A DNA stretch of 64,000 nucleotides, taken from NCBI GenBank assembly GCA_032139905.1, contig JAQJDB010000007.1, forward strand, positions 248,001 through 312,000, given 5' to 3'. The DNA is from Nitrospira sp. MA-1. Its GTDB lineage: Bacteria; Nitrospirota; Nitrospiria; Nitrospirales; UBA8639. The translations under genes were made by a program, and so were the position numbers. Below are positions 8,525 to 31,622 of this stretch, in pieces; position 1 is the stretch's first letter, and each line of letters opens with the position of its first letter. The notes under the pieces are model-generated. The model was not told the DNA's origin and searched no databases. It worked only from the letters and a program-made list of their open reading frames with translations.

Positions 8525-8953
8525 ATGCAACGCCAATCAATTGTGACAATGGCCGGTTTGATCGGCCTGCTTCTGGTGGGAGTGGGTGGCTGTGGTGTGT
8601 GGCCAGTCATGACCGAGGACCATGGACGACGGCCTCACGCCATGGGGAAAAGTGATCAAGTCTTCTCGCCTTGGGCACCCCAACCTATTCACCTTCATGA
8701 AGAGTATGGGTTGCCATATCGACAGGCTCTCGAAAATCAAATCGTGAATCCTGCGTCGGCCAACAATCTTGGTCCTATTCCTGGCTCAGCCGATTCACAT
8801 GCTCTGCACCAAAGTCTGGCTCGGTATCAGTTGATGTTTGAAAGCCCGCCGTACTCCCCGTTTAAATTGAAGGGTGGTTCCGGCGGTGGCTCATCAAGCG
8901 GTGGTTCTTCAGGCGGTAATGCCTCAATTGGGGTCTCTTCGGAGGGATATTAA
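8525..8953 (+). CDS. Small lipoprotein of the tad operon (CpaD-position)
   Basis: A predicted lipoprotein of 142 residues. The signal peptide ends in a lipobox (LLLVGVGGC), followed by a mature part without obvious domain and a Gly/Ser-rich tail (GGSGGGSSSGGSSGGN). AAAAGGAG lies 6 bases before ATG 8525, better than the earlier in-frame ATG at 8504. It sits between secretin and TadZ, where other Tad loci carry CpaD or pilotin-like lipoproteins. I see no sequence similarity to CpaD that I can name, so the role (secretin pilotin or partner) is inferred from position. Only one base separates its stop from the next start. Confidence 0.75.
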   Translation: MQRQSIVTMAGLIGLLLVGVGGCGVWPVMTEDHGRRPHAMGKSDQVFSPWAPQPIHLHEEYGLPYRQALENQIVNPASANNLGPIPGSADSHALHQSLARYQLMFESPPYSPFKLKGGSGGGSSSGGSSGGNASIGVSSEGY

Positions 8954-8954
8954 C

Positions 8955-10208
8955 ATGAAGGATAAAAGCTGGAAGCCAAAACGTATAGGCGCGGATTCCT
9001 CAGGGGCCTCATCTGATGTGCCAGTCATTGAGCTTTCCATTCGCTCGCAAGAATGTAAGGCGACCCTTGAGAGCATCATTCGGGAAACTGACGGTGTGCA
9101 GCTCAAGGACGGTCCGGATCCGGGAGTTCCTGCACTCATGATTATGGAACTTGAAGACACTCCGGAGGATACTTTCTCCCTTATTCGAGAGATGATGAAA
9201 TTGAATAAAGGGATGGAGATATTCCTGACCGCTGCCAGCCTGGAGTCCAATATTTTATTGGAAGCCATGCGTGCCGGAGCAAAAGAGTTTTTAGCCCAAC
9301 CACTCCAAAAGCAAGAAGTGAGCGATGCGATAATGCGATTTTTGGATCGGAGCACCGCCCCAGTTCGTCAGGGTGACGGACAACGAGCGGCGGGAAAGGT
9401 TCTCGCATTTTTTGGCGGAAAAGGTGGGGTGGGAACGACCAGTATCGCGGTAAATTTGGCTGCTGCTATAAAAAAAGGGCCCAACAACCCGTCCGTGGCA
9501 CTGGTGGATGTCAACCAGCATGGTGGAGATCTTCCCTTGTATCTCGATTTGCAACCGAACCATAGCTTCCGGGATATCGCGACAGATTTGTCCAGGCTAG
9601 ACCAGGCATTTCTCATTCGTGTCCTTACCAAAACGGAATTGGGCATTCAGGTGCTCCCGTCGGGGTATGACGATCTCAGCACAGGTCGATTAAGTCCTGA
9701 TTGTGTGGAGGCAACGCTCCGACTTCTTCAATCCAGTTTTGACTATGTCATTCTGGATTGTGGGCACGTGTTGGATTTGACCACGAAAAAGGCACTGGAG
9801 CTTGCGACGTTAATTATGGTGACATCCACGTTGATGGTTCCCGTAGTTCATCGAACGAAGCGGATTCTAGAGTTGTTGCGTGGTTCGGGATTTCCTGCGG
9901 AAAAAATCCGGTTGGTAATGAATCGATTTTTATCGGCGGAACAGGACGTGCTGAAAGAGACGGAAGATATTTTGAAACAAAAAGCGTTCTGGCTGCTCCC
10001 CAACGATTATCCCTCAGCAAGTCAAGCCGTGAATAGCGGAAAGCCGTTGATCGATGTGGCTCCCCGGTCGGCAGTGGCTCAGTCCTATCGGGATCTGGCT
10101 GGTTCCTTTGACGGGCAGGCGAAAAAACAGGCAAGCAAGGGATCGTTAGCAGGATGGTTGAATCCCTTTAAAGGGCGGAATGTTCAATCATCCCCTTCAG
10201 GGGCATAA
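8955..10208 (+). CDS. cpaE: Pilus-localising ATPase TadZ/CpaE
   Basis: A 417-residue ParA/MinD-like protein. The N-terminal atypical receiver-like domain (about residues 20-135; GAKEFLAQPL in its last part) precedes the ATPase domain. That domain begins with a deviant Walker A, GGKGGVGTTS (near residue 155), and has Walker B-like YVILDCG further on. TadZ proteins place the Tad machine at the cell pole. GGAGGG precedes the ATG at 8955; the longer open frame from 8874 overlaps the upstream lipoprotein and is rejected. Confidence 0.92.
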   Translation: MKDKSWKPKRIGADSSGASSDVPVIELSIRSQECKATLESIIRETDGVQLKDGPDPGVPALMIMELEDTPEDTFSLIREMMKLNKGMEIFLTAASLESNILLEAMRAGAKEFLAQPLQKQEVSDAIMRFLDRSTAPVRQGDGQRAAGKVLAFFGGKGGVGTTSIAVNLAAAIKKGPNNPSVALVDVNQHGGDLPLYLDLQPNHSFRDIATDLSRLDQAFLIRVLTKTELGIQVLPSGYDDLSTGRLSPDCVEATLRLLQSSFDYVILDCGHVLDLTTKKALELATLIMVTSTLMVPVVHRTKRILELLRGSGFPAEKIRLVMNRFLSAEQDVLKETEDILKQKAFWLLPNDYPSASQAVNSGKPLIDVAPRSAVAQSYRDLAGSFDGQAKKQASKGSLAGWLNPFKGRNVQSSPSGA

Positions 10209-10242
10209 TTTATCCCTTTCATGAGATTGAGGAATCTGGTCT

Positions 10243-11568
10243 ATGTACGAAACAAAATGGGATGAAGTGGGTGCGGGAGCGGGCATTGGGGGGTTAAACC
10301 TGGGCCCATTGAAGGAACGACTTCATCGTCAGGTGATTGATACCCTTGATTTGGCGGTTGTCGCGAAGTTGGATAATAATCTTCTCAAGGTCGAGCTGAC
10401 TAAGCTGGTCCAGGAAATGTTGGAGAAGGAATCTGTCCCTCTCAGTATGAAGGAGCGGGAAAGCCTGATTTCGGACATTGAGCATGAAGTTATGGGTTTA
10501 GGCCCACTTGAACCGTTGGTGCAAGATCAATCAGTGAACGATATTCTGGTCAACCGGGCCGACCAAATTTACGTGGAACGGGCGGGAAAACTTGAATTGA
10601 CTGATGTAAAGTTTCGTGATGAAGCCCATCTCCGGAAAATTATTGAAAAAATTGTGTCGGCTGTTGGGCGACGAATTGATGAATCGTCGCCAATGGTTGA
10701 TGCTCGTTTGTTAGACGGGTCACGCGTGAACGCCATTATTCCGCCGTTGGCATTGAATGGATCTTCTATTTCGATTCGAAAGTTTTCCAAGGATAAGTTG
10801 CAGATTTCGGATTTAGTGAACAAACGTTCCCTTACTCCCGAGATCGCAGAACTCCTTCGTGGGATTGTTGAAGCTCGACTGAATATCCTGATCTCGGGAG
10901 GAACCGGCTGCGGGAAAACGACCATTCTGAATATTCTGTCTGGATTTATTCCCTCAGACGAACGCATTGTGACGATTGAGGATTCAGCGGAATTACAATT
11001 GCGGCAAGAGCATGTGGTCCGGCTCGAAACCCGCCCTCCCAACGTTGAAGGGCGAGGAGAAGTGAGTCAGCGGGAATTAGTCAAAAATTGTTTGCGTATG
11101 CGGCCGGATCGAATTGTGATGGGTGAGGTGCGAAGTGGGGAATGTCTCGACATGCTACAAGCCATGAATACAGGGCATGATGGATCTCTGACTACGATTC
11201 ATGCCAATACCCCACGAGATTGTCTGACGCGGGTGGAGACATTGGTAGCCATGGCCGGGTTGAATCTGGCTACGAAGGCCCTTCGCCATTATATCAGTTC
11301 CGCTATCGATGTCATTCTCCAAATGACTCGCTTGTCGGATGGATCCCGGAAAATGACCAGTTTGTCAGAAATTGTGGGTATGGAAGGCGAAACCATTACT
11401 CTCCAGGAAATATTCTTGTTTCAACAAACCGGACTGGATGAAGAACGCAAGGTGCATGGGCAATTCAGGGCAACTGGAGTGCGACCGAAATTTGTCGAAC
11501 GGTTTAAAGCATTAGGCATTTCTTGTGATCCAAATATCTTCGACCCTGAGAAAATTTATGAAGTGTAA
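10243..11568 (+). CDS. cpaF: Tad secretion ATPase TadA/CpaF
   Basis: A 441-residue T2SSE/VirB11-type hexameric ATPase that powers pilus extension and probably retraction. An N-terminal region ends with [19 protein letters not shown]. Walker A is GGTGCGKTT (about residues 218-226), the Asp box [12 protein letters not shown] follows, then Walker [15 protein letters not shown] and the His box [13 protein letters not shown]. All key motifs are intact and length is typical. It lies between TadZ and TadB as in other Tad loci. Confidence 0.95.
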
Positions 11569-11658
11569 TAACCACTATTTCAATTGTTCCACTTTCACAA
11601 AGGCCTTAGTTGTGATGGTTCGTCTTGTTGATTCGTCATCTTGTTGGGAGGACGTATC

Positions 11659-12636
11659 ATGACCGTGGCCATTAGTATTGGAATATTTCTGTCCATTATT
11701 CTGTTTGTGGAGGGAGCCTATTACTGTTACCACCAATATGTGAATCCCCAGAACCGGAATTTTAAGCGGCGCTTGCGTGGGGGATCGGGAAAACCGGGAG
11801 ATCTTCAGAAAGCAATAGATGCGCCTGGAATTCTTCGAAATCGCAAGATGAGCGACATTCCGTGGATTCAAAGCTTGTTGGGGTCTATGACGACGTTGGG
11901 GGGACTGGAAAAATTACTTCAACAGGCCAATAGTCAAATGCCGGTTGGGGTATTTTTCCTCTTATCCGGAGTGCTGGGAGGAGTAGGGTTACTGGTTGCC
12001 ACTTTTCAAGACTATGGGATGTTTGCTGCCATGGGGCTCAGTCTTGTGGGGATGATGCTTCCATTGCTTCAGATGAAACGGAAGCGGAAACGTCGTTTTA
12101 AGGAATTTGAACGGCAATTACCCGAAGCTTTGGATTTAATGGCTCGTGCCCTTCGGGCGGGGCATGCCTTTTCTGTGGGTATGAAGATGATCGGGGATGA
12201 ATTTCCAGATCCGATTGGTCCTGAGTTTAGTCGAACCGTGGAGGAAATTTCGTTTGGAATCGATGTCCCTCAAGCGATGAACAATTTAAATGGGCGGGTG
12301 ATCAGTACGGATTTAAAGTTCTTTGTCACGGCCTTAGTCGTTCAACGAGAGACTGGTGGAAATTTAGCGGAAATCATTGAGGCGATTTCTCGACTCATCC
12401 GGCAACGATTTGAATTACTTGGTCGAGTCAAAGCGCTTTCGGCTGAAGGCCGGATGTCGGGGATTATTTTATTCTGCATGCCGATTGTGATGAGCATTCT
12501 GTTGTGGTTCTTGAATGAAGCCTACATGCGTATTTTGATTGAGGATGAGATGGGTCAAATGATGGCTCTAGGTTCAGGTTTGTTGATGATCGTGGGAGCC
12601 TTTGTGATGAAAAATATGTGTGATATTAAAGTCTAG
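11659..12636 (+). CDS. tadB: Inner-membrane platform protein TadB
   Basis: A T2SSF-domain protein of 325 residues that, with TadC, forms the inner-membrane platform. An N-terminal membrane helix is followed by a pair of helices near residues 100-140. The cytoplasmic T2SSF domain is visible (FERQLPEALDLMARALRAGHAF, in part; VQRETGGNLAEIIE), and further helices close the C-terminus. ATG 11659 is chosen because GGGAGG lies 10-12 bases upstream; the frame opens at 11641. The 9-base gap to tadC suggests co-transcription. Confidence 0.92.
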   Translation: MTVAISIGIFLSIILFVEGAYYCYHQYVNPQNRNFKRRLRGGSGKPGDLQKAIDAPGILRNRKMSDIPWIQSLLGSMTTLGGLEKLLQQANSQMPVGVFFLLSGVLGGVGLLVATFQDYGMFAAMGLSLVGMMLPLLQMKRKRKRRFKEFERQLPEALDLMARALRAGHAFSVGMKMIGDEFPDPIGPEFSRTVEEISFGIDVPQAMNNLNGRVISTDLKFFVTALVVQRETGGNLAEIIEAISRLIRQRFELLGRVKALSAEGRMSGIILFCMPIVMSILLWFLNEAYMRILIEDEMGQMMALGSGLLMIVGAFVMKNMCDIKV

Positions 12637-23398: not shown

Positions 23399-24184
23399 AT
23401 GCGCCATTCTCAAACTTCGACCAGAAATCCGGACATTAAAGACTGGACCAGCAAATATGGAAAACGCACCAACCTGCAATTTTTTAATGATGCGTTTGCG
23501 TACTTGCAGAAACAGGATATTGGCAATCGTGGATTGATGACCGTAGTGTTGATCGGCAGCCGGGATGTTCCCGGGCATACGCTACGAACCGCCCAGTCCA
23601 TGTTGCGTTGGGATCTCCGCCCGAGTTTTTGGTCGCATGTCTTTGTGGTGGCGGAAACGGTGACCTCTCGAACCTCGCTGAGATCCCTGCCGATCCTGGA
23701 AATCCCGCTGCATCCACGGAATGGGATCTTTCCAAGGCCGGAATGTAATGGCATCAACGGAGGCACCTTAGGCCTGTATGAGAATAAGGATATTGATGCC
23801 AATGTGGGGTTGGTGGCGGTAAGCATGTCAGACGAGGATGCCAAGAAACTTAAGAAACGGGCGATGAACTGGAATCAGGATCGTGTGCGTTACAATTTTT
23901 GGGAGATGTTGGGAGTTTGGCAAAGTTATCTCTGGTCCCAAGGGGCCAAACGCAATCCGTTGCGGGAAGGCACGCCGATCGCGGCGTCCTCCTATATTGA
24001 ATTCATCTTTGAAGGACTCGGCTTGGGTGTGACACCGGGTACCTCGGAACGTAATAGCGCCCCGGAGCATCTCTGGAATGCGGCCTGCTGGTGGCACAAG
24101 GCCTTCAAGGAACAAGACCGGAAAGTGGCCGGGGTGTTTGTTGCTCGAGATCGCGGGTGTGCCATGGCCGGTTGCGACGAATAG
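23399..24184 (+). CDS. Unrecognised protein, possibly NlpC/P60-like fold without the catalytic Cys
   Basis: A 261-residue soluble protein with an intact frame and AAGGAA upstream of the ATG. I do not recognise it firmly. Two segments recall permuted papain-like (YiiX/NlpC type) proteins: WSHVFVVAE, and AASSYIEFIFEGLGLGVTPG, which resembles the CSEFV...G..LTPG part of that fold with Ser where Cys is expected. No signal peptide is apparent. It follows the PhoD-like gene by about 80 bases and may be in the same operon. Confidence 0.6.
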   Translation: MRHSQTSTRNPDIKDWTSKYGKRTNLQFFNDAFAYLQKQDIGNRGLMTVVLIGSRDVPGHTLRTAQSMLRWDLRPSFWSHVFVVAETVTSRTSLRSLPILEIPLHPRNGIFPRPECNGINGGTLGLYENKDIDANVGLVAVSMSDEDAKKLKKRAMNWNQDRVRYNFWEMLGVWQSYLWSQGAKRNPLREGTPIAASSYIEFIFEGLGLGVTPGTSERNSAPEHLWNAACWWHKAFKEQDRKVAGVFVARDRGCAMAGCDE

Positions 24185-24227: not shown

Positions 24228-24640
24228 ATTCCGTCATTCCCGCAGTAGTAAGCGGGAATCCATCTGAGAAGAATCCTGATAGATTCCCGATGAATGATGT
24301 TGGGAACTACACCGTGTTTTCTCGTATCTCCGAAGGCAAGTCTTTTCCCCTTTGTGCCGCCGAGTCCCAAGTTTTTATCTACTTCTTCCTGCTCCTCCTC
24401 GGGCTTTACTTTATCTGCTGACTGGCATGTATGTGACTGGACGAGAGATGCCGGGTTTCGGCCCGGCAGCCGAGGTCCTTTTGTTTCGGCAAAAGGACCC
24501 AAAACCACTGACGCCCCGCCCTTCTCATCTGATTGATCGGACGCTAAACACGGGGGAGCGGGCCAACTCGCTACGCACACACAAGGCCCGCCAAGACAAA
24601 GAGCGTCCGATCAGGGGACGGGCGGCAGGCGTCGGAGAAG
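24228..24640. repeat. Intergenic element made of several perfect hairpins
   Basis: Four structures stand in line. ATTCCCGC/GCGGGAAT lies near 24233-24260. TGCCGGG-TTTCGG-CCCGGCA is at 24449-24468. GGTCCTTTTG-TTTCGG-CAAAAGGACC is at 24474-24499, with the same TTTCGG loop. The perfect 12-bp pair TGATCGGACGCT (24534-24545) and AGCGTCCGATCA (24602-24613) is nested inside GACGCC/GGCGTC (24510, 24628) and encloses GCGGGCC/GGCCCGC. Open frames across it are spurious. It resembles multi-copy palindromic intergenic repeats; copy number elsewhere in the genome cannot be seen here. Confidence 0.7.
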
Positions 24641-24898: not shown

Positions 24899-27800
24899 AT
24901 GCCAAAAAAAATTAATTCCCCCCTTTCTGGAAATCAGCCACGAATCTTTCTCTCTTACGCCCGGGAAGATGGCGAAGACTTCGCGCGTGACCTTCGGAAA
25001 AAGCTCACCGAACCTGAAGATCCGGGCCAGCCAAAATTTTCCCTCTGGCAAGACCGCACGCAAATGGAAGGGGGCAAAGACTGGTGGGACCAAATTCTGG
25101 AAGCACTCAAGCAGGTGGAATACATGGTCCTGGTTATGACTCAAGCCGCATTGGTCTCGCCCATCGTCAGAAAAGAATGGCGGCAGGCACGGCAGGAAGG
25201 GGTTGGTGTCATTCCGGTCTTTGGGCAACCCGACCTGGATCTGTCCCAACTCCCTCGCTGGATGCGGGATGTGCATTGGGTTGATACCGACGTCCCTGAA
25301 CAATGGACCCGCTTTATCCGCACGCTGGAGAGTCCGTATCAGGGTACGCGGGTGTCATTCATGCCCGATGACCTCCCGGCCGGCTTCGTGCCTCGGCTCA
25401 AAGAATTCGAAGAACTGGCCGGAAGCCTGCTGGACCCAAAGCAGGAGGAGCCGGTCGCCATCACTGCTGCCCTGAAAGGCGCCGGGGGCTATGGGAAGAC
25501 GACGCTGGCCAAGGCCCTCTGTCACGATGAACGGATACAGCATGCCTTTCACGACGGCATTCTCTGGGTCACGCTGGGTGAACAACCCAATACCATGGCC
25601 GGATTGACGAAACTCTATGCCCCCCTCACCGAGGAACGTCCCAACTTTGTGGACGAAGAAGATGCCTTGGCTCGGCTGGCTGAGGTCTTGGGAGACAAAG
25701 ATTGTCTGATGGTCATTGACGATGTCTGGAATGCCGCACATTTGCGCCCGTTCCTGCGTGGAGGCAAACGGTGCGCGCGGATCATTACCACAAGAGACAG
25801 CTGCACACTTCCTGAAACCGCCAGACTTCGGGTGCCGGTGGATGCCATGCAACAACAGGAAGCGTTGGCCCTGTTAGCCTTCGATCTGCCGGCCAATGAT
25901 TTGGCAAATGCCGAAACTACAGCGCTTCAATCCTTAGCCGCACGATTAGGGGGATGGCCGTTCTTGTTGAAGTTAGTCAATGGCGCCCTCCGGGAACGGG
26001 TGAACACGATGAGGCAGCCCCTTCCAGCCGCGTTGGTTTATGTGCAAAAAGCCTTAGAAAAGCGTGGTCTCACCGCATTTGATGCCAGAAATCCAGTCGA
26101 ACGCAACCAAGCTGTGGCTGCTACCCTCACGGCTAGTTTCGAACATCTGAAAGAAGACGAACTCGTCCGCTATCAGGAACTCGCAATCTTTCCCGAGGAT
26201 GTCGAAATTCCGCTGATGGCGATCGCCAAACTCTGGAATGCAACCGGAGGTTTGGACGACTTCGACACAGAGGAACTCTGCACCCGGTTGAATCAATTAT
26301 CACTTCTTTTGTCCTACGATCCCACCACACAACGAATCCAATTGCATGATGTGGTGCGAACCTATCTGGAAGAACAAGTGGCTTCGCATTTACCGGGACT
26401 TCATGGACAATTTCTTGATACCTACGACCTGAAGCATGAACCAATCAAATCCGCACAAGACCCTTATCTCTGCCGCTACCTGGCCTATCATCTGGTCAGG
26501 GCCGAGCGGTGGGAGGAGTTAAAAAACTTTCTTCTGAATGTGGACTGGCTCTATGCCAAGTTGGAAACGTTAGATGTGCCGGCTCTGCTCTCGGATTTTG
26601 ATTGGATAAGGAGTGAGGAAATCTTCAGCGTGGTTCAGGGAGCCATCAGACTCTCAGCACATATTGTAGGAAAAGATCCGAAACAATTGGTAGGGCAATT
26701 GCTCGGTCGTTTACAAAATGAAGACTCTACTGAAATCAAGAATTTGGTTGAGAAGTCTAAACGATGGAGAAAACACCAGTGGCTCCGGCCGTTGCAAGGA
26801 AGTCTAATTGCGCCGGGGGGGCCACTCATTCGGACTCTCAGCGGACATAGTGCCTTAGTAAATGCAATTGCGGTAACGCCAGATGGGACGAGGGTGATTT
26901 CGGCCTCGTATGATCAGACGTGCATTGTGTGGGATCTAGCCACAGGGCAGGGGTTATACACTTTAAGCGGACATTATGATTCGGTGAGGGCGGTGGCTGT
27001 GACGGCGGATGGGATACGGGCGATTTCGGCCTCCCAGGATGGGACTTGCATTGTGTGGGATTTGATGACAGGGCAGAAGTTACAGACTTTTCACGGGCAT
27101 CATGGTGGGGTAAATGCGGTGGCGGTGACGCCGGATGGGAGGTGGGCGATTTCGGCCTCCCAGGATCAGACATGTATCGTGTGGGACTTGAGGACGGGGA
27201 ATGAGTTGCAGATCTTTCGCGGGCATCGTGGCTGGGTGAGCGCAGTGGTGGTGACGATTGAGGGGACACGGGCGATTTCCGCCTCGGAGGATGGAACGTG
27301 CATTGTGTGGGACCTACACACGGGGAAGGAACTGCATACCTTACGGCGCGGACATCCTGGCCAGGTGAGCGCGGTGGCGGTGATGGCGGATGTGACGCGG
27401 GCGGTTTTGGCCACGACTGATCAGACATGCATCGTGTGGGATCTGGGCACGGGGCAGGAGCTGCAGACCTTAAGGTTGAATCGTGCCTCGGGGAGGGCAA
27501 TGGCGGTGACGGCGGATGGGACGCGGGCCATTTTGGCCACGACTGATCAGACCTGCATCGTGTGCGACCTTGGCATGGGGCTAGAACTGCAGACTTTATA
27601 CGGGCATAGTGGCCCGGTGACAGCGGTTGCGGTGACCGCGGATGGAACGCGGGCGGTTTCCGCCTCAATCGATTGGACGTGCAAAGTGTGGGATCTTAGC
27701 GTGGGGCAGGAGCTGCAGACCTTACGCGGGCATCGTGACTGGGTGACTGCGGTGGTGGTGACGGGGGATGGGACGCGGGCGATTTCGGCTTCGGGAGATC

Positions 27801-28588
27801 GGACATGCAAAGTGTGGGACCTGAGCACGGGGCAGGAACTGCATTCCTTGTGCGGATATAGCGGCTGGGTAATTGCGGTGGCAGTGACGCTGGATGGGAC
27901 GCAGGCGATTACCGTTTCGGAGGATTCGCCATGTATCGTGTGGGATCTTGCCACAGGAAAGGAGCTGCAGACTATACCTGGATGTGGTCGCGGGGCGACG
28001 GCGGTCGTACTGACGGCGGATGGGCGTGCGGTTTTGGTCTCGGGTGATCAAACCTTAAAGGTGTGGGCCCTGGATACGGGGCAGGAACTGCATACTTTAC
28101 GCGGACATAGTGGCGGGGTGACCGCGGTGGCGGTGACGGGGGATGGGACGCGGGCGATTTCCGTGTCGGACGACCAGACGTGCAAAGTGTGGAACTTGGG
28201 CACGGGGCAGGAACTGCATACTTTACGCGGACATAGTGACGGGGTGACCGCGGTGGCGGTGACGGCGGATGGGACGCGGGCGATTTCCGCATCGAACGAC
28301 CAGACGTGCAAAGTGTGGGACTTGGGTACGGGGCAGGAACTGTATACTTTACCTGGACATAGTGGCAGGGTGACCGCGGTGGCATTGACAGTGGATGGGA
28401 TGCGAGCGGTCTTGGCCTCGGATAATTGGACGTGCAAAGTTTGGGATTTGACCAGCATGAAGGAGGTCGCCACTTTTATCGGAGAGAGCGTGATTAGCTC
28501 CTGCGCGGTTTCTCCTGATAGCAAAACGATTATAGTTGGAGAAAGAGCCGGGCGTATTCATATCCTCCGTCTTGAGGGAGTTGAGTGA
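24899..28588 (+). CDS. TIR - NB-ARC - WD40 STAND protein, likely defence or cell-death NTPase
   Basis: A 1229-residue protein with three parts. The TIR domain spans about residues 13-145 (RIFLSYAREDGEDFARDL; DRTQMEGGKDWWDQI; VMTQAALVSPIVRKEW). The NB-ARC NTPase follows with P-loop GAGGYGKTTLAKAL near residue 195, Walker B LMVIDDVWN near 270, the RIITTRD sensor and a winged helix ending in IQLHDVVRTYLEEQV. A helical linker leads to WD40 units from about residue 646 to the end. The layout matches bacterial NLR-like STAND proteins, in which ligand sensing by the propellers triggers oligomerisation and TIR NADase or signalling activity. The catalytic Glu of the TIR cannot be assigned with certainty by eye. 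The gene stands alone, behind a hairpin element. Confidence 0.93.
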   Translation: MPKKINSPLSGNQPRIFLSYAREDGEDFARDLRKKLTEPEDPGQPKFSLWQDRTQMEGGKDWWDQILEALKQVEYMVLVMTQAALVSPIVRKEWRQARQEGVGVIPVFGQPDLDLSQLPRWMRDVHWVDTDVPEQWTRFIRTLESPYQGTRVSFMPDDLPAGFVPRLKEFEELAGSLLDPKQEEPVAITAALKGAGGYGKTTLAKALCHDERIQHAFHDGILWVTLGEQPNTMAGLTKLYAPLTEERPNFVDEEDALARLAEVLGDKDCLMVIDDVWNAAHLRPFLRGGKRCARIITTRDSCTLPETARLRVPVDAMQQQEALALLAFDLPANDLANAETTALQSLAARLGGWPFLLKLVNGALRERVNTMRQPLPAALVYVQKALEKRGLTAFDARNPVERNQAVAATLTASFEHLKEDELVRYQELAIFPEDVEIPLMAIAKLWNATGGLDDFDTEELCTRLNQLSLLLSYDPTTQRIQLHDVVRTYLEEQVASHLPGLHGQFLDTYDLKHEPIKSAQDPYLCRYLAYHLVRAERWEELKNFLLNVDWLYAKLETLDVPALLSDFDWIRSEEIFSVVQGAIRLSAHIVGKDPKQLVGQLLGRLQNEDSTEIKNLVEKSKRWRKHQWLRPLQGSLIAPGGPLIRTLSGHSALVNAIAVTPDGTRVISASYDQTCIVWDLATGQGLYTLSGHYDSVRAVAVTADGIRAISASQDGTCIVWDLMTGQKLQTFHGHHGGVNAVAVTPDGRWAISASQDQTCIVWDLRTGNELQIFRGHRGWVSAVVVTIEGTRAISASEDGTCIVWDLHTGKELHTLRRGHPGQVSAVAVMADVTRAVLATTDQTCIVWDLGTGQELQTLRLNRASGRAMAVTADGTRAILATTDQTCIVCDLGMGLELQTLYGHSGPVTAVAVTADGTRAVSASIDWTCKVWDLSVGQELQTLRGHRDWVTAVVVTGDGTRAISASGDRTCKVWDLSTGQELHSLCGYSGWVIAVAVTLDGTQAITVSEDSPCIVWDLATGKELQTIPGCGRGATAVVLTADGRAVLVSGDQTLKVWALDTGQELHTLRGHSGGVTAVAVTGDGTRAISVSDDQTCKVWNLGTGQELHTLRGHSDGVTAVAVTADGTRAISASNDQTCKVWDLGTGQELYTLPGHSGRVTAVALTVDGMRAVLASDNWTCKVWDLTSMKEVATFIGESVISSCAVSPDSKTIIVGERAGRIHILRLEGVE
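26835..28575 (+). repeat. Array of 14 WD40 coding units of about 126 bp
   Basis: Fourteen consecutive units of about 42 residues can be laid out, each of the form LRGH...V.AVAVT.DGTRA.SAS.DQTCKVWDL.TGQELHT. Units 6, 9, 10 and 14 have lost the GH dipeptide and are degenerate. Fourteen units would make two seven-bladed propellers. At DNA level units 11 and 12 (from 28081 and 28207) differ at about 7 of 126 bases, which indicates recent duplication or gene conversion. Confidence 0.85.
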
Positions 28589-28737
28589 GGGAACAATTTT
28601 TTTGCTTGTCCTGTGCATGCAAATAAATTAGTCTTCTAGGGTTTTATTAATTTTGTATTTTTTGCTCCCTTTTAAGTGTTTTTCTTTTCAAAGAGACAGT
28701 GAAGGGAAGAGGGCAGAAAGTAGGTTTGGGAACTGAC

Positions 28738-30065: not shown

Positions 30066-31622
30066 TTGAAGCGAATTTCACCGAGATGGCGATCCTTTGC
30101 GGCTCATTTACGTGGGAATCAAAGCGATGCTGAACAGCGGCTCTGGGAGGAAATTCGAGATGGTCAGATCAAGGGATGGAATTTCCGGCGGCAACATCCC
30201 ATCGGTAAGGGTATCGTTGATTTTTGTTGTTTGGAAAGGATGCTGATCATTGAGCTGGATGGTGGAGAACAACGAGAACAAGAAACCACTGATGAGGAGT
30301 CCACCAAGTATTTAACGGCTTTAGGGTTTCGTGTACTTCGATTTTTAAATGATGAGATTCTGGCTAAACCTGAGAATGTGGTGGAGGAGATCGTGAGAGT
30401 CATGGAACATTCTGAGAACCCACATTCTTCCTCTAGCCCTGTCACCTGTTCAGAGCCGAGCACTAGCATGGAGATGGAATCAGAGGATGCCCATACTCGC
30501 ATTTTCTCTAATCAGGCAAAAGTCCCTCATACGGCGAGAGGATCTGCGATAGGGGTTCGAATGCCCGCAGAGTGGGAGCGACACGAGGCGACTTGGCTAG
30601 GATGGCCCCATAATACGAAAGATTGGCCGGGGAAAATGGGAGCAATCTCTTGGGTGTATGGGGAAATGGTTCGAAAGCTCTCTGGTGGAGAAACTGTTCG
30701 AATTCTCGTGAATGACAAAGACCATGAATTAAAAGCCCGGCGGGTGTTAGACAAAGTTGGGGTCGATATTACCCGTATTCAATTTTTTCGTGTGCCGACC
30801 AATCGGGGGTGGGCGCGGGACTTTGGCCCTATTTTCGTGAGACGGGATCAGCCTGATCATCAAGAAGCGATTGCCCGTTTTCGCTTTACCGCCTGGGCCA
30901 AGTATCCGGATTGGCAATTGGATGATCGTATCCCGGTTCGGTTAGGCGCGAAACTGAAGATTCCCGTGGTTCCGGTTGAGCGAAATCGGAAAGGGGTTGT
31001 TCTGGAGGGTGGTGCCATCGATGTGAACGGCCAAGGGACCTTGTTGACCACGGAAGAATGTTTGTTGGATGCCCAGGTGCAGGTACGGAATCCTGGGTAT
31101 TCTCGACGGGATTATGAGGAAGTGTTTGGCAGCCATTTAGGCATTTCCCAGGTTCTCTGGTTGGGACAAGGCATTGCTGGTGACGATACGCATGGGCATG
31201 TGGATGATGTGTGCCGGTTCGTGGATCCCTATACGGTGGTGCTCTGTCAGGAATCCAATCCAGCCGATGAAAACTATCGTCCATTGGCTGAAAATGCCGA
31301 GCGATTAGAGGGGATGCGGGTGGAAGACGGGAGAAAGTTACTGGTGGTGCCCTTGCCGATGCCTGGGCCGCTGTATTTTGAAGGACGACGGCTACCCGCC
31401 AGTTATGCCAATTTTTATATCGGCAACGCTGTCGTGTTGGTGCCCACCTTTAATGATCCTCAGGATCGGGTGGCGGTAGGGATTGTGGCTGACCTGTTTC
31501 CTGATCGCACCGTGGTGGGTATTCATGCCGTGGATCTGGTCTGGGGGTTCGGGACCATACATTGTTTGACGCAACAACAACCAGCCTCTGATCATTTGTC
31601 GATCTTCAAGGAGCGTTCATGA
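30066..31622 (+). CDS. aguA: Fusion of a DUF559 endonuclease-like domain to agmatine deiminase
   Basis: A single 518-codon frame with a TTG start preceded by GAGGGGG. Residues about 1-115 are a DUF559 (Vsr-like) domain: SDAEQRLWEEIRDGQIKGW, FRRQHPIGKGIVDF, IIELDGGEQ, GFRVLRFLNDEIL. A Ser-rich linker of about 50 residues follows. From about residue 166 (ATG 30561) it is agmatine deiminase, with ERHEATWLGWPHN, RGWARDFGPIFV, LEGGAIDVNGQGTLLTTEE (in part), GHVDDVCRFV and the Cys in GTIHCLTQQ. Agmatine deiminase yields N-carbamoylputrescine, the AguB substrate. Usual AguA lacks the first domain. Internal initiation at 30561 (AGGGG upstream) could also release plain AguA. Confidence 0.88.
   Translation: MKRISPRWRSFAAHLRGNQSDAEQRLWEEIRDGQIKGWNFRRQHPIGKGIVDFCCLERMLIIELDGGEQREQETTDEESTKYLTALGFRVLRFLNDEILAKPENVVEEIVRVMEHSENPHSSSSPVTCSEPSTSMEMESEDAHTRIFSNQAKVPHTARGSAIGVRMPAEWERHEATWLGWPHNTKDWPGKMGAISWVYGEMVRKLSGGETVRILVNDKDHELKARRVLDKVGVDITRIQFFRVPTNRGWARDFGPIFVRRDQPDHQEAIARFRFTAWAKYPDWQLDDRIPVRLGAKLKIPVVPVERNRKGVVLEGGAIDVNGQGTLLTTEECLLDAQVQVRNPGYSRRDYEEVFGSHLGISQVLWLGQGIAGDDTHGHVDDVCRFVDPYTVVLCQESNPADENYRPLAENAERLEGMRVEDGRKLLVVPLPMPGPLYFEGRRLPASYANFYIGNAVVLVPTFNDPQDRVAVGIVADLFPDRTVVGIHAVDLVWGFGTIHCLTQQQPASDHLSIFKERS

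What the first reader, a model, noticed from the sequence alone, without database searches (positions are those of the whole stretch)
24899..28588. TIR-NB-ARC-WD40 NLR-like protein with two seven-bladed propellers
A single-gene APAF1/NLR-like layout with TIR effector, NB-ARC switch and 14 WD40 units (7+7). It is a good candidate for a phage-sensing STAND defence system; no defence partner is adjacent, so it may act alone. The TIR catalytic Glu is not evident at the position I would expect.
Basis: partly seen in the sequence, partly recalled or inferred. Interest (0 to 1): 0.72.

Follow-up and report, generated by a model that had tools for sequence, protein, structure and literature searches.

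The report
Bacterial APAF1-like TIR–NB-ARC–WD40 immune receptor
A Nitrospira-type bacterium carries a single gene built like the animal cell-death sensor APAF1 but with a TIR domain (a likely NAD-cutting enzyme) in place of the CARD; it is dispensable, and its sensor repeats differ between species at one fixed chromosomal site, as expected of a stand-alone immune or self-recognition receptor whose target is unknown.

Summary
ORF 24899-28588 encodes 1229 aa: TIR_2, NB-ARC, an APAF1-type helical domain and 14 WD40 units (13 canonical plus a conserved C-terminal cap). The best solved relative is APAF1, by sequence (E 6e-26, residues 160-607) and by model (Z 19.5, 450 residues). 7+7 blades is plausible (three diverged homologues also have about 14 units), but the AlphaFold model does not confirm the split.

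It is not housekeeping: in the genus the same site is empty in 10 genomes and occupied in 5, plus one cut by a contig edge. There the first WD40 unit and the cap are orthologous, whereas internal units differ in number and group by genome. Variation peaks at the four propeller-face positions diversified in Podospora HET-D/E; relaxed constraint suffices, positive selection is not shown. No defence partner is adjacent and no phage homologue was found. Most likely mechanism: ligand-triggered oligomerisation and NAD depletion. Antiphage function is inferred, not shown. New member of a known kind (bacterial TIR-STAND/NLR).

The parts
24899..28588 (+). TIR-NB-ARC-APAF1_C-WD40 receptor gene, 1229 aa
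24938..25291 (+). TIR domain (residues 14-131)
   Evidence: Pfam TIR_2 E 1.8e-17; model matches SARM1 and SPARTA TIR domains
25175..25177 (+). Predicted catalytic glutamate E93 (SPIVRKEW)
   Evidence: invariant in all 11 aligned homologues; aligned with SARM1 VHKE
25376..26389 (+). NB-ARC plus helical/winged-helix region (residues 160-497): Walker A 25478-25504, Walker B 25706-25729, RIITTRD 25775-25798, LHD motif within 26336-26365
   Evidence: Pfam NB-ARC; APAF1 alignment; motif positions
26390..26803 (+). APAF1-type helical domain 2 (residues 498-635)
   Evidence: Pfam APAF1_C 498-571; model aligns to Apaf-1 up to residue 633
26813..26938 (+). First WD40 unit (PGGPLIRTLSGH...), orthologous between species
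26939..28450 (+). 12 internal WD40 units, of lineage-specific number and sequence between species
28451..28585 (+). Conserved C-terminal cap unit (EVATFIGES...CAVSPD...LRLEGVE)
   Evidence: same kind of cap in all genus orthologues and in L007, L009, L079

Best explanation
A stand-alone intracellular STAND receptor. At rest the C-terminal WD40 propellers fold back on the ADP-bound NB-ARC/winged-helix/helical core and keep it monomeric, as in Apaf-1 (inferred). A protein ligand, most likely from a phage or another invader, binds the top faces of the propellers (inferred). Nucleotide exchange opens the core, which oligomerises into a ring that brings the TIR domains together (inferred). The TIR domains, which keep the catalytic glutamate (shown as sequence), hydrolyse NAD+ and halt or kill the cell, so that infection aborts (inferred). 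The sensor changes by gain, loss and homogenisation of WD40 units between a fixed first unit and a fixed cap (seen between species, subject to assembly caveats).
For: Complete TIR, NB-ARC, APAF1_C and 14 WD40 units in one ORF. Closest solved relative APAF1 over NB-ARC, winged helix and HD2, top of the structural list with Z 19.5, 450 residues, 5.0 A, followed by plant resistosome NLRs at 16-19. TIR part matches SPARTA TIR (Z 15.4) and SARM1 (13.8); catalytic Glu conserved. Purifying selection on the effector and switch. Presence/absence at one fixed site. Internal WD40 units are nearest to units of the same genome in 81% of cases against 24% expected (0 of 2000 permutations as high), while first units are closest to first units. 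Variation concentrates at four a priori propeller-face positions (mean entropy 2.36 bits versus 0.95; 0.06% of 4-position subsets as high).
Against: No defence gene among the ten neighbours scanned and no defence island. No strong PADLOC match to a named system apart from a repeat-driven one. Site and flanks look old and shared rather than mobile, unlike most phage-defence genes. Positive selection not shown: in unit pairs under 0.25 divergence the hotspot replacement rate (26/123 = 0.21) is below the synonymous rate of the other positions (119/368 = 0.32). NADase activity, oligomerisation and phage protection are untested.
Confidence: 0.55

Rival explanations
1. It works by the same switch and TIR effector but senses an endogenous or conspecific signal (stress-released protein, or self/non-self after contact), i.e. 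programmed cell death or allorecognition as with APAF1 and Podospora HET-D/E, rather than phages.
For: Architecture closest to APAF1. Repeat turnover and the variable positions parallel HET-D/E (PMC1805685). No defence island. One distant homologue sits beside a type VI secretion cluster.
Against: Absence in close relatives makes a core endogenous role less likely; the fungal precedent needs cell fusion; only one T6SS association seen.
Confidence: 0.25
2. The TIR is a scaffold or signalling domain, and the protein is an AfsR-like STAND regulator with no killing activity.
For: AfsR is among the NB-ARC matches.
Against: No DNA-binding domain found; catalytic Glu and TIR core conserved with dN/dS 0.05-0.10.
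Confidence: 0.12
3. On the sensor only: the differences in WD40 number between genus members are mostly assembly artefacts or decay, and the receptor simply has 14 blades.
For: Diverged homologues all have about 14 units. Relatives are fragmented MAGs; one copy is frameshifted in a contig of stated coverage 0.78 (record title). Short-read assemblies of such repeats are unreliable (PMC12222747).
Against: In the window, G002 and G006 nearly all units differ from each other by more than 10% of bases, and unit sequence, not only number, differs by genome.
Confidence: 0.4

Closest known systems
APAF1 / Dark apoptosome proteins
   Same: NB-ARC, winged helix, APAF1_C helical domain and double WD40 array in the same order; best sequence and structural match
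   Different: N-terminal TIR instead of CARD; 14 WD40 units rather than 15 (7+8, own knowledge); bacterial; no caspase partner nearby
Bacterial TIR-AP-ATPase/STAND proteins (PADLOC TIR-NLR; TIR-AP-ATPase fusions noted in PMC7159879, citing Leipe 2004)
   Same: TIR effector fused to an AP-ATPase/NB-ARC switch with C-terminal repeats
   Different: WD40 sensor instead of TPR; the PADLOC TIR-NLR model matches only weakly (13 bits)
Podospora HNWD receptors HET-D/HET-E/HET-R
   Same: STAND switch with WD40 array of 42-aa units; variable number; variation at the positions flanking the conserved V and D (codons 7, 9, 25, 27 in PMC1805685; here 15, 17, 33, 35)
   Different: NACHT and HET domains rather than NB-ARC and TIR; gene family with inter-gene exchange there, single gene here; HET units nearly identical, here mean 59% aa identity; positive selection shown there, not here
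Avs / bNACHT antiphage STANDs
   Same: Tripartite effector-STAND-sensor logic
   Different: No such family among the PADLOC matches at E<=1; different NTPase clade and sensor
TEP1 / Swarozyc (DUF4062) TIR-like NADases (PMC13174449)
   Same: TIR-like NADase next to a STAND NTPase and WD40 array, APAF1-like layout, in TEP1
   Different: Canonical TIR_2 and NB-ARC here, not DUF4062 and NACHT

Membership tests
STAND NTPase, AP-ATPase/NB-ARC clade | NB-ARC domain with Walker A, Walker B, sensor-1 Arg motif and winged-helix LHD/MHD-type motif | tested here: met
   Pfam NB-ARC 68.9 bits versus cut-off 23.5; motifs; Walker A/B and TTR invariant in the alignment
NADase-type TIR domain | TIR fold with the catalytic Glu | tested here: met
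   TIR_2 64.4 bits; E93 invariant and aligned with SARM1 Glu
NADase-type TIR domain | NAD+ hydrolysis | not testable with these tools
   needs biochemistry
APAF1 family proper | CARD at the N terminus | tested here: not met
   TIR occupies this position
APAF1 family proper | APAF1_C helical domain followed by WD40 array | tested here: met
   PF17908 38.8 bits, cut-off 22.8; 14 WD40 units
Double seven-bladed propeller (7+7) | Two closed seven-bladed WD40 propellers | tested here: inconclusive
   14 units, 56 strands, but the break between propellers in the model is uncertain
PADLOC TIR-NLR | Match to the TIR-NLR model over its length | tested here: not met
   13.3 bits, only TIR residues 16-99 against positions 4-79 of an 824-position model
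Avs (antiviral STAND) | Match to an Avs family model | tested here: not met
   no Avs model among PADLOC matches at E<=1
HNWD-type repeat-diversified receptor | Variable WD40 number and concerted evolution between alleles | tested here: inconclusive
   unit number differs between species and units group by genome, but relatives are draft MAGs and no conspecific strains could be compared
HNWD-type repeat-diversified receptor | Positive selection at propeller-face codons | tested here: inconclusive
   highest variability there, but replacement rate not above the synonymous rate elsewhere

The most novel reading that the evidence does not exclude
A single-copy bacterial NLR at a fixed chromosomal site diversifies its sensor by shuffling and homogenising WD40 units between an invariant first unit and an invariant cap, with specificity carried by four propeller-face residues per blade: a bacterial parallel to the fungal HET-D/E allorecognition receptors.
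Probability: 0.3. Interest if true: 0.65.

Novelty: new member of a known kind. Interest (0 to 1): 0.42.

Why it matters
It is a compact bacterial counterpart of APAF1 that keeps even the APAF1 helical domain, with an enzymatic TIR in the CARD position, so one polypeptide could show how a WD40-gated apoptosome-like switch works without caspases. If the sensor really turns over by unit shuffling, specificity could be read and swapped blade by blade. It also lies outside any defence island, where neighbourhood-based defence searches would miss it.

Tried and rejected
Missing TIR glutamate: rejected; a first phmmer alignment with AbTIR was in a different register, settled by the family profile. 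Phage or provirus origin: no match in 50,697 phage records and no relative in viral contigs. Plasmid origin: only matches under 60% identity. Housekeeping gene: rejected by the genomes without it. Recent horizontal insertion: not favoured, since flanks and gene diverge similarly, all occupied sites are the same, and a conserved upstream segment is shared; in one clade this requires several losses, so transfer is not excluded. Exchange with other WD40 genes of the genome: only one distant pair of matches (33-40%). Positive selection on hotspots: not shown. Upstream structured RNA: no Rfam match; the structured stretch is a dispersed repeat with 47 matches in the genome.

Full report
What is there. 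The ORF at 24899-28588 (+) encodes 1229 aa. Pfam finds TIR_2 (16-131), NB-ARC (170-372) and APAF1_C (498-571), each over its gathering score, and WD40 repeats with E 1.4e-93. Splitting by hand gives 13 GH...WD units plus a degenerate last unit, 14 in all.

The catalytic glutamate. In 11 aligned TIR domains E93 in the sequence SPIVRKEW is invariant. A profile of these sequences aligns this KE with the VHKE of SARM1, the glutamate known to be catalytic there (own knowledge, E642), and with the corresponding KE of a TIR-TPR protein (9m0n). NADase chemistry is thus possible; activity was not tested.

The switch. Walker A, Walker B, the TTR sensor and an LHD motif (counterpart of the NLR MHD motif) are present. 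phmmer finds APAF1 over residues 160-607 at 6e-26, above AfsR and plant NLRs. The AlphaFold model of residues 1-639 (mean pLDDT 76, pTM 0.58) matches Apaf-1 best (Z 19.5, 450 residues, 5.0 A), then plant NLRs, CED-4 and Dark; its TIR part matches SPARTA TIR-APAZ and SARM1. dN/dS between species is 0.05-0.10 in the TIR, 0.08-0.11 in NB-ARC and 0.15-0.18 in the helical domain, so the coding capacity is maintained.

The propellers. The model of the WD40 part has 56 strands (mean pLDDT 84) but pTM 0.54 and low confidence between fragment residues 181 and 260; structural matches break near fragment residue 226, i.e. after unit 5. This is not a clean 7+7, and I treat the split as open. In favour of 7+7, the WD regions of three diverged homologues (L007 and L009 from Anaerolineae, L079 from another Nitrospirota family) are 581-597 aa long, about 14 units, and end in the same kind of cap.

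Distribution. Only one copy lies in the genome. Among the 21 genomes of the genus searched, orthologues occur in G000, G002, G006, G013 and G016; G018 has a WD40 fragment with the cap immediately upstream of the same flanking gene, at a contig edge. All are at the same place, between the 261-aa gene at 23399 and the carbon-nitrogen hydrolase at 28699. Ten genomes have no trace of it at this site (G004, G005, G007, G008, G010, G011, G012, G015, G017, G019): eight have a short spacer between the same two neighbours, and two (G010, G015) lack the upstream gene too. On a tree of flanking proteins presence is scattered: one loss explains the near clade, while the far clade needs several losses or a transfer into G006. 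In the order, 16 of 236 genomes have any match at 1e-20. Homologues at 43-53% identity occur in Chloroflexota.

Sensor turnover. WD40 unit counts at this one site, cap included, are 14 (window), 8 (G002), 2 (G016), 16 (G006), 3 (G013, frameshifted, low-coverage contig) and at least 10 (G018, truncated). First units are closest to first units of other species, but internal units are closest to units of the same genome in 81% of cases against 24% in permutations. This is the pattern of lineage-specific duplication and homogenisation. Caveat: the relatives are draft MAGs, and short-read assemblies of WD40 arrays of this kind lose or create units (PMC12222747). The 2- and 3-unit forms in particular may be artefacts or decayed alleles.

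Variable positions. Paoletti et al. 2007 (PMC1805685) found positive selection in Podospora WD40 units at four codons flanking a conserved V and D. The equivalent columns here (15, 17, 33, 35) were taken from that paper, not chosen by their variability. In the window's 13 units their mean entropy is 2.36 bits against 0.95 elsewhere; 0.06% of all 4-column sets score as high (0.02% in 48 pooled rows, one of which is a cap row). 47 units carry 43 different four-residue combinations. However, the replacement rate at these columns is not above the synonymous rate of the other positions, so lack of constraint on an exposed face is sufficient. High diversity at hotspot sites in repetitive prokaryotic WD40 proteins is already reported (PMC5587647).

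Context. Ten neighbours scanned against PADLOC give only marginal HD-domain matches. The genome has five further TIR_2 loci over the Pfam cut-off, including a TIR-NB-ARC-TPR protein on another contig, so the host has several TIR proteins. In G080 the homologue lies beside type VI secretion genes, a single case. No phage record carries a relative.

Verdict. TIR fusions to AP-ATPases in bacteria are known (PMC7159879), so this is a new member of a known kind, with an APAF1-like sensor half and a possible repeat-shuffling sensor as its interesting side.

Noticed in passing
window 24449-24637: A dispersed repeat of about 190 bp with strong hairpins (RNA fold z -6.5) upstream of the receptor gene; 47 matches in the genome, both orientations, often clustered; no Rfam match. 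Possibly a REP-type element.
   Followed up: partly
L003:3-443: ORF whose sequence (..VMLPDHLCLRTLPPGDADFGTRWRLVK..) resembles REP-associated tyrosine transposases, a candidate mobiliser of the dispersed repeat (recognised from memory, not tested).
   Followed up: no
window 30066-31622: Agmatine deiminase-type protein (PAD_porph) with an N-terminal DUF559 nuclease-like domain in one ORF; an ORF of similar length and start occurs in L003 and L004.
   Followed up: no
L079:2-14596: A homologous TIR-NB-ARC-WD40 gene (8625-12257) lies between type VI secretion genes (IcmF, DotU, VasE, FHA) and a PP2C phosphatase plus nucleotide cyclase.
   Followed up: partly
L081:5511-7586: Second NLR-like gene of the same genome: TIR-NB-ARC-TPR, 692 aa.
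   Followed up: partly
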